Shown: positions 12,475-22,963 of the stretch, piece by piece
Layout of the letters: each line of letters starts with the position of its first letter
Position numbering within the stretch: the stretch's first letter is position 1
Assembly (NCBI RefSeq): GCF_000003605.2
Contig: NW_003135348.1
Location: 298,520-321,488 of the forward strand
Direction of reading: 5' to 3'
DNA length: 22,969 nt
Source of the DNA: Saccoglossus kowalevskii
Lineage: Eukaryota > Hemichordata > Enteropneusta > Harrimaniidae
Notes under the pieces: model-generated
The model's database searches: none
What the model was told of the DNA's origin: nothing
The model's input: the letters and a program-made list of their open reading frames with translations, nothing else
Position numbers and translations under genes: made by a program

Positions 12475-12639
12475 TTAAAGCGGGGGAGTCGTCACCTACC
12501 CATGCGTCAGGTGGCCATAGCGTGTCATTGTTTACAAACAAGCGTCTACCCATGAGCCTTCGCGTTTTTATCGTGTGTTGTTATCGTCGCTTGGGACTCA
12601 ATTCCCGAGCGTGCGCAGGTGACGACCATCCCGCTTTAA
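12475..12639 (+). mobile_element. TTAA-flanked MITE, family A, complete copy
   Basis: Both ends are TTAA followed or preceded by an inverted repeat: AGCGGGGGAGTCGTCACCT on the left and AGGTGACGACCATCCCGCT on the right. The element is 165 bases with the TTAA sites and has no coding capacity. TTAA target duplication with terminal inverted repeats fits a non-autonomous piggyBac-type element, though other superfamilies are not excluded. A second copy at 22816-22963 shares the interior, including CGTGTGTTGTTATCGTCGCT and TTGGGACTCAATTCCCG. The 108-residue frame crossing this copy is an artefact. Confidence 0.85.
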
Positions 12640-12903
12640 AGGCCCAATTCACTCGCGACTCGGTTTATTTTTTTCTGCAGTTGTTTTCTAGCAACGTCCA
12701 AATAACAACAGACATGCTACCAACAATCCGTTGTCAAATACTAGTATGCCAAAAGGCAGTAATTTTTTTACTGATTTTTATATAACGTATTGGGTAAAAA
12801 AGTAATAATTTTGGCAATGTCATTAAATAGGTCGATTGCTCGCGAATGACCTTCTTATAAAATAGAAGGTTAACATCATAAAAGTGTCTGATAAATGAGG
12901 ATG

Positions 12904-18449: not shown

Positions 18450-21400
18450 CTGTGAAAAAAAAAGATTTAAAAGTAAATAGTTGGCTTAGGGTCGTCCATT
18501 AGAAACTCTAAGAAGATGGTTTGGGGGAAATTGTTAGCACGGAGAGAGCATTTTAGAAAAAAACAACACTCACACAAATTTTCTCCAAACTATGCGAGAA
18601 AATATAATTTCCACAGTTTTTCTACCACCCTCGTTATTTCTAATGGCCGACCCCTTATCGTCACCAAAATAAACTCAAAGATAAATGACATGTTTATGAA
18701 ACTGCACCTTCAATGATGATATGTGTCACCAATGAAAACACGCGCCCGTAACGTGACGATCATACAAGTCGAGAGTTCCGGACGGTTTTAAAAATATAAA
18801 CGCTGAAATTTCTTTATTTTTAATTGCAGTTGCGACTGCCAAGTAGAATCTTTGTACTTTAGTACATGTATTCTGTTATAATTTTAATTGAATAGTTTGT
18901 GCTATGGTAATCCAAAATGAAATGCCAAGTCCCCGAATGCAATGATGACGTGTTGTGATCTGATTGGTGTACAGGTCTTGTGGTTAATACAGTTAATGAT
19001 ATAAACGTTCGTTTATAACAACAAGTTATTGGTTTATCGTAACTTAGGAGAAGTTGTGATAGCTACATTGTCTGATGAGACCAGTGTAATATCAACTGTA
19101 TAAATAATTACGGCAATTAACTCGCCAAACACCATAGATGTTAGTGATAAATTTTAGGATTTGTGGCAGCCCTCATTTTATTTTAATTATTTTTATTTTT
19201 ATTAGTAAATTTAGTTAACTACGTAGTTCACAAATTTATAGAAATCTTAAATTAAAAAATAAATCCGATTGTAGTTGTTTTCTTAGACTATAAACTACCA
19301 CATATTTGAACTGTCATATTGAATGCATGTTATCATATTACACTAAAATATGTACTGTTAAACGTAATTGTAATTTCCCTAATGATTTTTAGCTAATTTG
19401 AATAAGTTACATTCTAATAATGAAACGTTTGCCACTTTAGGTAAATTAAAATTTATTTAATTTATGCTTCAAGCTCAATTCGCTAAAATGACATGCAGCT
19501 ATTATAAAGTGTTTTGCAGTACGCATCGAAAAAGTTGTCTTGTATCGCCCCTCGATAATAATCTTTGGACTGGGTAAATGATGGCCATTCTTCTGTGAAG
19601 TCATTTAGGGACTCGTGTCTTATGGTAGTCTACCAGGAAAAAAATGGTAGATGTAAAACAGAGCAAATGTTCTCTGGTGTAACACAAATAAATGTTACAA
19701 TAATTGCACATTAAATCATTAACTGTATTAACCAGACAGACAGCGTGCCAATCGTAGTGCTCTGAATTCAACTCACCGAGTAGGGGCGCTGTTTAACTAT
19801 AATTCCGCTCGATAAGAGTGCCACCTACCGTCACTAAGTTGTTTAAATAAGTCCACCCAATCTGAAGACTTTCGATAGAATACCGGCGGGTAGCCGATGG
19901 GGGCGTCAACTTCCACGTATTCGCCATCAGATGATTGATCTTTGTTGTCCCATAAATATACCCACTCGTCTTTTGGTAGATACACCCTCCAGGTATCACG
20001 CCCTTCTTGTGCGACTGGCGCCACCAATAGATCACGACCGTAGAGATACTGATAAGCAATTCCAAAGGTTTCGTCGTCATCTTCATAATGAAGGAATAGA
20101 GGGCGCTGCATTGGAATGCTACTGTTGACGTTCTCTGATACTAAAAACTTGGTGTAGTCAGTCAAAGTGTGATGGAGGTGAGTAAGGCGGGCAAAGTTTC
20201 TGAGCGTGCTATCGCTTGAATAATACTGCCAGTTTTCTTTTGGGCGGTTTCCTTCGTGCGTTCTCATCATGGGGGTGAATACCGCCATCTCTGCCGAACG
20301 AAGGAGCAGCTCTTCTGATCGACTATAGCCGTAAAGGGCGGTATAACCACCAATATCGAAATGGGTCATTCCACAGCCAATCATCGACATCGACAAAGCT
20401 GCTGGGATGGTGGACGGGAGACCATCACTACGACTGAAATCTACAAACTGGTCGCCGGCCCACATTATTGTGCTATATTGCTGAGAACCTGTGTAGCCCG
20501 CCCTCATCCAGTACACTATTTCCCCTAACTTGCCACTTTCTTCTACAGCTTCTCTGTTCATCTTGGCCCAGAGAGCAGGCCAGGCGTTGTGCATCACTTC
20601 GGCGCTCTCCCCGCTATGGAGAACAACATCTTTAACTGGTAGGTACTCCCCGAAATCCGCCATCCATCCTGACAATCCCAACTCGATCATATTTTTGATA
20701 ATAATCTCGTTTTTATACCATTCATAGGCATCGGGATTAGTAAAGTCGAGAGTTCCACAGAAAAATTCTCCAAAATCAGCGACATAAGTATCACCGGCAG
20801 TGTTCTTTACGAAGTACCCAAGAGCGTCGCCTTCTTTGAAAAGATCGCCCTCTATGTTTAAGTACGGATTTACATATGTTAACACGCCAATTCCTTCGTT
20901 TTTTAGATTTTGTATTTCCTCTCTCAGATTGGGATAATGTTCTTCGTTCCACTTCCAGTTCCAGAATATTCTAGATCCAAAAGAAGTTGTAATCCGACCA
21001 GCCCAATCTTGAATCCACATCGCACTTAGTTCAATATCATACTCCTTGGCTTGGTCAACGTATGCCAGCATCGCGTCGGTACCCCCTTGTACGCCGAGAG
21101 TCGCCCCTCTGTATATCCACTCGGGCAGCTCCGGTTGTCGTCCCAGAAATCCACCAAGTTTTTGGACTAATTCTAGCATCGTGTCCGCAATGTCGAAATA
21201 AATTTCCCCGGGCTCCGCGCTCCATATTTCAACTTCGTGAAAATCGCGCGGTATGAAATTCAACACCGAGTACACGGTCGTGCTGAAGTGGCAGTAGTAC
21301 TTGCGAGAGGATACGAATGTAGGTTGCGGGAAGTACGTCGTGTGGTAGTCACCCCCGCCCCCGTCGGTGTTGTCTGCGTTGAACGTCGTGATAGTACTCT

Positions 21401-22723
21401 TGTTTCGACCAACTCCTTGTTCTCTCGTCCACAAAGGAAATTCGTTGCCACGGAGATCAAAGTAAGAGAACTGCTCACCTCCGCCGTAGACGTGCTCATC
21501 GTCTTCTGCTACAAATCTAACCCAGTAACGGTTAATTCCTGGTGGTGTTTGCATGAACCTCACAACATTGTTTTCATTGCTAAACGTGACGTTGGTCTAA
21601 AGAAATATAGAAATCATAAAGCAATAAATAATGTAAAAGAGGTAATAATTATTGGATAGAAAGACTGGAGCTAATATTGATATTTGATACGTAAACACAA
21701 GAAATCAATATACGTCAAATCAATAAATAATAAATTTGAAGTTACGAGTTTTGACGGATTTGGATTGTGGTGAAAACACAATGAATCACAGTCCTTCTAT
21801 AGAATCAACACAAATCTTGCACAAGCGCGGCACAGGAAAATTCACGATATTTTATTATCTCAAGTTATGACTCAGATTACATACTGTTCAACTGATTACA
21901 TAGAAGGGCAAGGATTTAAAAACATTAAAGCGGGAGAGTCGTCACCTGCGCATGCGTCAGATGGCCATGACGTTACATCGAAGGATGGCGGATTGTGTTT
22001 AAAGCGTGGTGGTCGTCGCACCGTGCTTGTGGAAACTTGCGTTGTTGAATAATGATTTTTCTACAACGTACCACGCTCTGCGGGTTTGGGGTGGGGCTTC
22101 TCAGTGTCGAGTATGAATGCGAGATTGATCTGGCCATAATGTGTACTAAATGCCGACTTTGTGACTTTTTAAGAGTATTTGACACGTTTCAATCATCTCA
22201 TGAATTGTCTAGTTATAACTTGGAAATGTAAAATCGCCGCGTCTGTTAACATGGGACCGGCGTCTTCTACATCACCCACGTGTGCAACGCGACGACCACC
22301 ACCTTTTAAAATCATCCCATACATAAGGCCGCACATGAAAAATTCCACTACTACGCAACAAAAGGGAGCCAACTCAAAGACGCTACTCACCGCATATTCC
22401 CCGTTTCTTGAAAACGACACAATATATTCTGGAATTTCGCTGTGGACGACAAAGTCTGTTAATGCAATTCTCTCAATCAGATACTCATCGATTTTAAAAT
22501 TGCCGTGGAGTTCATCGATGTCGGCTTCGGCGTTTCCAGTGTATAAAAACGGGGAGTCCTCAGTATGGTGTATCAACTCAATGTTGCCAATGGATACGGT
22601 TAGGGTGGATCCCGTATAATCGACGTTGAAGGTACTGTTTACGAACGTGTTGTGAGACAGGATAAACAAAATGCAGATCAGAAAAATCCTAGAAGCATTG
22701 TGCTGCAAAATAAACGGTGACAT
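18352..22723 (-). CDS. Secreted GH31 sulfoquinovosidase-like glycoside hydrolase
   Basis: The predicted reaction is hydrolysis of alpha-sulfoquinovosides such as sulfoquinovosyl glycerol, the head group of plant, algal and cyanobacterial sulfolipid. Exon 1 (22723-22391, residues 1-111) has a signal peptide with hydrophobic core IFLICILFIL at 13-22, then the beta-sandwich start with GNFKIDE and IALTDFVVH, matching E. coli YihQ. Exon 2 (21596-19829, residues 112-700) carries the whole barrel. The nucleophile is Asp425 (WMADFGEYLP, YihQ Asp405) and the acid/base is Asp493 (MWAGDQ, Asp472). All sulfoquinovose-recognition residues are kept: Gln281, Gln307, Arg320, Trp323 and Tyr529 (YihQ Q262, Q288, R301, W304, Y508). 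Sequons at Asn29, Asn113, Asn176 and Asn602 fit secretion. The C-terminus is uncertain: a distal tail exon (18449-18352, 732 residues in all), a nearer exon at 19629, or read-through to TAG at 19799-19797 (710 residues). YihQ has 678 residues. Family and specificity are well supported; the 3' structure is not. Confidence 0.9.
19452..19457 (-). terminator. Candidate proximal poly(A) signal AATAAA
   Basis: AATAAA on the minus strand lies about 145 bases beyond the TGA at 19603-19601 and is consistent with use of the proximal last exon. Confidence 0.3.
19601..19629 (-). CDS. Candidate proximal alternative last exon of the GH31 gene
   Basis: A pyrimidine-rich acceptor (ttttttcctggtag) at 19630 is followed, in the phase set by the donor at 19829, by DYHKTRVPK and TGA. 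This would give a soluble protein ending shortly after the domain, as YihQ does. AATAAA at 19457-19452 could serve it. The same exon in another phase stays open for 48 codons to 19483, so its true frame is unsettled. Confidence 0.3.
21925..21998 (+). mobile_element. Truncated MITE, family A, left end only
   Basis: TTAAAGCGGGAGAGTCGTCA and the following CATGCGTCAGATGGCCAT match the left ends of the copies at 12475 and 22816. No right terminal repeat follows; the match stops where the family B element begins at 21999. Confidence 0.75.
21999..22309 (+). mobile_element. TTAA-flanked MITE, family B, complete copy
   Basis: TTAA flanks a 303-base body with terminal repeats AGCGTGGTGGTCGTCGC (left) and GCGACGACCACCACCTT (right), which are inverse complements with small differences. 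It has no coding capacity. Its ends resemble family A (TTAAAGCG, GTCGTC), so the two may be mobilised by related transposases. The apparent plus-strand frame at 22179-22619 crosses this element and the antisense of GH31 exon 1 and is not a gene. Confidence 0.75.
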
Positions 22724-22815: not shown

Positions 22816-22963
22816 TTAAAGCGGAGGAGTCGTCACATGCACATGCGTCAGATGGCCATAGCTTGTTATTGCTTACATGAGCCTTTGCGTTTTTAGCGTG
22901 TGTTGTTATCGTCGCTTGGGACTCAATTCCCGCACGTGCGCAGTGACATCCCTCCCGCTTTAA
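22816..22963 (+). mobile_element. TTAA-flanked MITE, family A, complete copy
   Basis: TTAA and AGCGGAGGAGTCGTCAC open the element; GTGACATCCCTCCCGCT and TTAA close it. At 148 bases it is about 17 shorter than the copy at 12475-12639, mainly through loss of an interior segment near TTTACAAACAAGCG. It sits directly upstream of the GH31 gene and could contribute promoter sequence. Confidence 0.85.

What the first reader, a model, noticed from the sequence alone, without database searches (positions are those of the whole stretch)
19829..22723. Animal-type gene for a sulfoquinovosidase with the complete substrate-recognition set
The protein has a signal peptide and introns, so it is a genuine eukaryotic gene, yet it aligns closely with bacterial YihQ over its whole length. 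All five sulfoquinovose-recognition residues (Gln281, Gln307, Arg320, Trp323, Tyr529) and both catalytic aspartates (425, 493) are present at conserved spacing: 26 residues between the two Gln, 13 to Arg, 3 to Trp, and 36 from the acid/base to Tyr. This predicts an animal able to cleave dietary sulfolipid head groups itself, a step usually credited to bacteria.
Basis: partly seen in the sequence, partly recalled or inferred. Interest (0 to 1): 0.8.

Follow-up and report, generated by a model that had tools for sequence, protein, structure and literature searches.

The report
Acorn worm gene for a sulfoquinovosidase
An acorn worm (a marine animal) carries in its own nuclear genome an intact, apparently secreted version of a bacterial-type enzyme that cuts the sulfur-sugar off plant and algal membrane lipids, a step credited mainly to bacteria; the activity itself has not been tested.

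Summary
On the minus strand two exons (22723..22391, 21596..19797; GT-AG intron, 794 nt) encode 710 aa, with all seven named active-site residues at the stated positions. The protein is a GH31 sulfoquinovosidase (SQase): exon 2 scores 861 bits to the curated YihQ model (cut-off 553); it is 54% identical to the nearest of 80 bacterial relatives and 50% to E. coli YihQ; the QQRWY motif is complete; 110 of 114 columns invariant in 81 bacterial SQases are kept. MYORG and mammalian alpha-glucosidases score far lower. It is an animal nuclear gene: intron, hydrophobic leader absent from 81 of 81 bacterial SQases, MTHFR exons in the same window, 548-kb contig. The assembly's mitochondrial gene order and code fit the printed description of the acorn worm Saccoglossus kowalevskii. 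Rooted on KERWY-type SQases it nests among bacterial ones (100/97); with distant outgroups this is unresolved (AU p 0.069). E. coli YihS, YihT and YihV found no match in the genome. Best reading: a probably horizontally acquired enzyme of the secretory pathway that releases sulfoquinovose from algal sulfolipid glycosides. Activity, location and expression are untested.

The parts
22391..22723 (-). Exon 1, 111 codons: start ATG at 22723, hydrophobic leader (about residues 1-28), first part of the N-terminal domain
   Evidence: NF007746 positions 10-88, 34 bits; residues 4-23 absent from 81 of 81 bacterial SQases
21597..22390 (-). Intron, 794 nt, phase 0, GT...AG; holds a MITE-like repeat
   Evidence: splice sites TATGCG|GTGAGT and TTCTTTAG|ACCAAC; repeat family D7
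19797..21596 (-). Exon 2, 599 codons plus stop: rest of the N-terminal domain, GH31 TIM barrel and C-terminal domain
   Evidence: Pfam PF01055, PF21365, PF13802; NF007746 861 bits; PDB SQases
21087..21089 (-). Gln281, equivalent to YihQ Q262
   Evidence: Q in 75 of 80 relatives, K in 5; coordinates worked out from the exon 2 frame
21009..21011 (-). Gln307, equivalent to YihQ Q288
   Evidence: Q in 75 of 80, E in 5; coordinates worked out from the exon 2 frame
20970..20972 (-). Arg320, equivalent to YihQ R301
   Evidence: R in 80 of 80
20961..20963 (-). Trp323, equivalent to YihQ W304
   Evidence: W in 80 of 80
20655..20657 (-). Asp425, equivalent to YihQ D405 (nucleophile)
   Evidence: D in 80 of 80; catalytic role recalled
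20451..20453 (-). Asp493, equivalent to YihQ D472 (acid/base)
   Evidence: D in 80 of 80; catalytic role recalled
20343..20345 (-). Tyr529, equivalent to YihQ Y508
   Evidence: Y in 80 of 80

Best explanation
This is a nuclear gene of an acorn worm (Saccoglossus, very probably S. kowalevskii) for a GH31 sulfoquinovosidase of the YihQ (QQRWY) type. It most likely came from a bacterium, related to the Clostridium/Paenibacillus plus enteric YihQ group, and then gained an intron and a leader that sends the protein into the secretory pathway. Working as YihQ does, it would hydrolyse alpha-sulfoquinovosides (sulfoquinovosyl glycerol, and perhaps the intact lipid) by the retaining two-Asp mechanism (D425 nucleophile, D493 acid/base), with Q281, Q307, R320, W323 and Y529 selecting the sulfonated sugar. 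In a deposit feeder the likely site is the gut lumen, acting on algal sulfolipid; the sulfoquinovose released is probably left to gut microbes, since E. coli YihS, YihT and YihV found no match in the genome. Shown by sequence: gene structure, family membership, motif, animal host. Inferred: enzyme activity, secretion, gut site, diet, direction of transfer, fate of the product.
For: Intact two-exon frame and all seven residues. phmmer of exon 2 against PDB: 8r56 765 bits, YihQ 738 and 735, 6pnr 707, 5ohy and 5ohs 656 and 654; then 149 for the next GH31, MYORG 67, lysosomal alpha-glucosidase 61; 8r56 and 6pnr bear only general GH31 names there. NF007746 861 bits against cut-off 553. 54.2% identity to the nearest of 80 bacterial loci (blastp). 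110 of 114 columns invariant in 81 bacterial SQases kept. Tree rooted on KERWY SQases: nested, 100/97. One SQase locus in the assembly; the other three matches are 25-26% identical. Animal context: contig of 548,376 bases, MTHFR exons in the window, SCO1 and IMS-domain exons in the flanks. Host: mitochondrial contig of 17,037 bases, genes named by eye, with COX1 inverted, ND2 before ND1, ND5 next to CYTB; ATA at conserved Ile sites and the one COX1 AAA at a conserved Lys site, conservation judged from recall; this fits the printed account of S. kowalevskii (PMC3121625 and PMC2697986, passages). E. coli YihV, YihT and YihS: no match in the own genome, while E. coli MetF found the MTHFR exon of the window.
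Against: No activity, expression or localisation data. The protein departs from 17 of 191 columns that are at least 95% conserved in 81 bacterial SQases; the same count for each bacterial row left out in turn is 18 and 15 for the two highest and at most 10 for the rest. Two of the changes lie close to active-site motifs: S503F just before the DIGGY Asp, and R294I with an Arg one place earlier (YihQ numbering). With distant GH31 outgroups, a tree with the animal protein outside the 30 sampled bacterial SQases is not rejected (AU p 0.069), so transfer from bacteria is likely but not proven. The 80 relatives were the best by similarity to the query, which biases the trees; no other eukaryote could be sampled. 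No structure model was obtained.
Confidence: 0.78

Rival explanations
1. It keeps the SQase scaffold but has moved to a different substrate, for example another anionic or C6-modified alpha-glycoside made or eaten by the worm.
For: Long terminal branch (1.2-1.5 changes per column); 17 deviations at columns at least 95% conserved, including S503F and R294I near active-site motifs.
Against: All five recognition residues and both catalytic Asp kept; 110 of 114 invariant columns kept. Two bacterial rows deviate about as often (L083 18, L027 15).
Confidence: 0.12
2. Same enzyme, but it works in the lysosome or ER rather than as a secreted digestive enzyme, for example clearing sulfolipid taken up with algal matter.
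For: A leader only points to entry into the secretory pathway; four N-glycosylation sequons outside the leader, one of them at its likely end, would also fit a lysosomal protein; the C-terminus RAEL resembles, but does not fit, an ER-retention signal (motif recalled).
Against: No positive evidence for a retention or lysosomal signal; no localisation data either way.
Confidence: 0.25
3. The gene was inherited vertically from an early eukaryote and lost elsewhere, not transferred from bacteria.
For: Placement outside the 30 sampled bacterial SQases is not rejected with distant outgroups (AU p 0.069).
Against: Rooted on KERWY SQases it is inside the bacterial QQRWY group, 100/97.
Confidence: 0.15
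4. An ordinary animal GH31 (MYORG-like or alpha-glucosidase).
For: Same superfamily; the same genome has a MYORG-like GH31 ORF (L002: 455 bits to MYORG 7qqf) and many other GH31 exons (38 matches to PF01055 in all).
Against: 67 bits to MYORG and 61 to lysosomal alpha-glucosidase against 654-765 to YihQ-type structures; separate from L002-L004 and YicI in the trees; recognition residues missing in L002-L004.
Confidence: 0.01
5. Bacterial contamination in the assembly.
For: High similarity to bacterial proteins.
Against: GT-AG intron interrupting the coding frame, MTHFR exons in the same window and other animal-type exons in the flanks, a repeat family shared by the intron and the rest of the window, contig of 548 kb; closest of 80 bacterial relatives only 54% identical.
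Confidence: 0.01

Closest known systems
Escherichia coli YihQ (GH31 sulfoquinovosidase; PDB 5aed, 5aeg, 5oht)
   Same: Near full-length homology, 50% identity over 675 aligned positions, QQRWY motif, both catalytic Asp, same spacing.
   Different: YihQ lies beside YihR, YihS, YihT, YihU and YihV and lacks the leader; here a lone nuclear gene with a leader and an intron.
PDB 8r56 (titled 'Glycosyl hydrolase, family 31'; that it is the Eubacterium rectale SQase is recalled)
   Same: Best structural match, 765 bits over 579 residues of exon 2.
   Different: A bacterial enzyme (recalled); no leader-bearing animal gene.
Agrobacterium-type SQase (KERWY; PDB 5ohs, 5ohy; organism and type recalled)
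   Same: Same enzyme family, 654-656 bits; R, W, Y and both Asp also present in the 5 KERWY rows.
   Different: KERWY rather than QQRWY; the KERWY rows form a separate clade.
MYORG (animal GH31, PDB 7qqf) and the own-genome MYORG-like ORF L002
   Same: GH31 superfamily, animal.
   Different: 67 bits to the window exon; 24% identity of L002; no QQRWY residues in L002.
GH188 NAD-dependent sulfoquinovosidases (SqgA)
   Same: Also release sulfoquinovose from its glycosides; homologues reported in plants and a red alga (PMC10755693, passages).
   Different: Another family with an oxidoreductive, NAD-dependent mechanism.

Membership tests
GH31 sulfoquinovosidase (YihQ family, NCBIfam NF007746) | Score above the curated cut-off of the YihQ model | tested here: met
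   exon 2 alone 860.8 bits against 553
GH31 sulfoquinovosidase (YihQ family, NCBIfam NF007746) | Sulfoquinovose-recognition residues QQRWY (or KERWY); motif recalled | tested here: met
   Q281, Q307, R320, W323, Y529 align with YihQ 262, 288, 301, 304, 508
GH31 sulfoquinovosidase (YihQ family, NCBIfam NF007746) | Catalytic nucleophile and acid/base Asp | tested here: met
   D425 and D493 align with YihQ D405 and D472, D in 80 of 80 relatives
GH31 sulfoquinovosidase (YihQ family, NCBIfam NF007746) | Phylogenetic placement with the SQases | tested here: met
   separated with them from YicI and L002-L004 at 99 SH-aLRT and 98/95; among QQRWY SQases at 100/97 when rooted on KERWY
GH31 sulfoquinovosidase (YihQ family, NCBIfam NF007746) | Hydrolysis of alpha-sulfoquinovosides | not testable with these tools
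   needs expressed protein and substrate
E. coli-type sulfoglycolysis (sulfo-EMP) gene set | YihS, YihT, YihV in the same genome | tested here: inconclusive
   no match for any of the three; an indirect control, E. coli MetF, found the MTHFR exon of the window at 51% identity over 65 residues; diverged or heavily split genes, or genes in stretches reading N, could be missed
MYORG / animal alpha-glucosidase GH31 | Best match to those enzymes | tested here: not met
   67 and 61 bits against 654-765 for YihQ-type structures
Genuine animal nuclear gene | Intron, animal neighbours, animal host | tested here: met
Secreted protein | Cleavable N-terminal signal peptide | tested here: inconclusive
   hydrophobic leader, residues 4-23 without counterpart in 81 bacterial SQases; no signal-peptide predictor on hand
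Horizontal transfer from bacteria | Animal gene nested inside a bacterial clade | tested here: inconclusive
   nested with KERWY root; outside position not rejected with distant root, AU p 0.069; no other eukaryotes could be sampled

The most novel reading that the evidence does not exclude
Acorn worms took a bacterial sulfoquinovosidase gene into their own genome and use it as a secreted digestive enzyme on algal sulfolipid: an animal-encoded gateway step of sulfoquinovose breakdown that feeds sulfoquinovose to the gut microbiota.
Probability: 0.5. Interest if true: 0.75.

Novelty: new member of a known kind. Interest (0 to 1): 0.6.

Why it matters
[quoted passage not shown] Another says that degradation was seen in plants and algae but the eukaryotic enzymes remain unknown (PMC9594981, passages). 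A 2025 study says it was unclear whether animals can degrade sulfoquinovose and finds that germ-free mice and a human cell line do not metabolise the free sugar (PMC12330013, passages). An animal with its own SQase would change where the first step of turnover of an abundant organosulfur compound can take place, and the question can be tested with one recombinant protein.

Tried and rejected
Contamination: rejected by intron, leader, neighbours and contig size. MYORG or alpha-glucosidase: rejected by scores and trees. A viral source: one scan of viral contigs gave one pattern match and no relative. Pathway genes: YihS, YihT and YihV searched in the own genome without a match; YihR, YihU and the genes of other sulfoquinovose pathways were not searched. 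Cysteine loss as a sign of adaptation to secretion: 3 Cys outside the leader against a bacterial mean of 10, but some bacterial rows have 4; sequons 5 in all against a bacterial mean of 1.7 but a maximum of 7; both weak and not relied on. Structure prediction: busy; accepted, unfinished at 105, 107, 109, failed at 111, ticket unknown at 113; not obtained, so no fold search was run. Whole-genome search busy. A first script for reading relatives out of the loci used a motif filter and lost 55 of 80; it was replaced (83 of 83 loci). Papers: Speciale 2016, Abayakoon 2018 and Simakov 2015 are not held, so what they say about eukaryotic SQases was not checked; from recall, the Speciale abstract calls sulfoquinovoside degradation widespread across the tree of life. 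Searches bearing on prior reports of an animal SQase: (40 papers with the word, all 40 listed; passages read in six of them: PMC12330013, PMC12890257, PMC7281551, PMC9594981, PMC10755693, PMC9061262) and the listings (10 to 15 papers shown of each); I saw none named there, but most papers of subscription journals lie outside the library. A compendium of metazoan gene transfers has no mention of Saccoglossus, hemichordates or glucosidase in its main text (PMC13342648, term search); its supplementary tables could not be opened.
Full report
OBSERVATION. The reading is right with small corrections. On the minus strand an ATG at 22723 opens exon 1 (to 22391), a GT...AG intron of 794 nt follows (22390..21597), and exon 2 runs from 21596 to a stop ending at 19797; the product is 710 aa. 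The two exons match consecutive stretches of one curated model, NF007746 positions 10-88 and 106-678, so the splice is well supported.

FAMILY. Exon 2 alone scores 861 bits to NF007746 (cut-off 553; next family 194 bits, below its own cut-off of 606). Among solved structures the first six distinct sequences are YihQ-type at 654-765 bits (8r56 and 6pnr bear only general GH31 names there); the next GH31 scores 149, MYORG 67, lysosomal alpha-glucosidase 61. The recognition motif is QQRWY in 75 of the 80 and KERWY in 5; both catalytic Asp and R, W, Y are present in 80 of 80. Of 114 columns invariant in 81 bacterial SQases (the 80 plus E. coli YihQ) the window protein keeps 110 (96%); each bacterial row left out in turn keeps at least 95% of the set so obtained. 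Of 191 columns conserved at 95% or more it departs at 17; the bacterial rows left out in turn depart at 18 (L083), 15 (L027) and at most 10. Two departures, S503F and R294I in YihQ numbering, are close to active-site motifs; what they do is unknown.

TREE. All 86 rows, quick method: the SQases including the window protein are separated from YicI and from three own-genome GH31 ORFs (SH-aLRT 99). Sixty-one rows, careful method, rooted on the KERWY type: the window protein nests among QQRWY SQases in a clade of 18 rows, with Clostridium frigoris, a Paenibacillus and the enteric YihQ group (100/97). For that tree 25 of the 86 rows were left out beforehand: the 4 outgroup rows and 21 to thin redundancy, 16 of them enteric. 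Thirty-five rows rooted on distant GH31: the inner order is largely unresolved, and the alternative with the window protein outside all 30 sampled bacterial SQases is not rejected (AU p 0.069). Bacterial origin is therefore the better-supported reading, not a proven one, and the sampling was biased toward the query.

HOST AND CONTEXT. The window is C2729:298520-321488 of a 572-Mb assembly of 4830 contigs, on a contig of 548,376 bases. MTHFR exons lie in the same window, and SCO1 and IMS-domain exons (REV1-like by eye) in the flanks; much of the flanks reads N. Contig C4830 is a 17,037-base mitochondrial genome; with genes named by eye, COX1 is inverted, ND2 stands before ND1, ND5 next to CYTB, and ND6 on the other strand. 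ATA falls at Ile sites and the single COX1 AAA at a Lys site, conservation judged from recall. PMC3121625 (passages) gives for Saccoglossus kowalevskii an inversion of COX1 plus transposition of ND1 or ND2 relative to Balanoglossus, ATA = Ile and AAA = Lys; PMC2697986 (passages) adds ND5 next to cob in the hemichordates. The host is thus an acorn worm of this genus, very probably S. kowalevskii; the name was not given by any tool. An enteropneust paper describes the group as benthic deposit feeders (PMC6315191, passages).

WHAT IT DOES. Mechanism, by homology to YihQ (roles of the residues recalled): retaining hydrolysis of alpha-sulfoquinovosides. The N-terminal leader (residues 4-23 without counterpart in 81 of 81 bacterial SQases, hydropathy peak at 13-23) points to the secretory pathway; secretion itself is inferred. 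The assembly holds one SQase locus and other, distant GH31 genes, of which L002 is MYORG-like. E. coli YihV, YihT and YihS found nothing there, while E. coli MetF found an MTHFR exon of the window (51% identity over 65 residues), so close homologues of those three are probably absent; other pathways were not searched. The likely product, free sulfoquinovose, would then be left to microbes.

KNOWN OR NOT. Printed statements place sulfoquinovose degradation in bacteria, call the eukaryotic enzymes unknown and animal capability unclear. GH188 SQase homologues are reported in plants and a red alga, a different family. The paper searches run here showed no animal GH31 SQase in what was listed or read, but the founding SQase papers are not held. 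The enzyme kind is known; the host, gene structure and leader are what is unusual, so it is filed as a new member of a known kind.

Noticed in passing
12475-12640, 21925 to about 22310, 22816-22963: A repeat family beginning TTAAAGCGG; two of the three copies end in CCGCTTTAA (by eye), so MITE-like. One member sits in the SQase intron and one just upstream of the gene.
   Followed up: partly
1108-2309: An array of diverged copies about 300-325 bases apart, between exons of the MTHFR gene.
   Followed up: no
19797-22723: The SQase coding sequence has third-position GC 0.51, against 0.24-0.36 in three ORF stretches that cover MTHFR exons in the same window.
   Followed up: no
19797-19811: The protein ends in RAEL (minus strand), near but not matching an ER-retention motif (motif recalled).
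   Followed up: no
G000:C2830 and C4069 (L002-L004): Long open GH31 ORFs lie two to a contig on two contigs. L002 is MYORG-like, the others were not searched. In L002 and L004 the catalytic Asp columns align with other residues, so they may be inactive or misaligned.
   Followed up: partly
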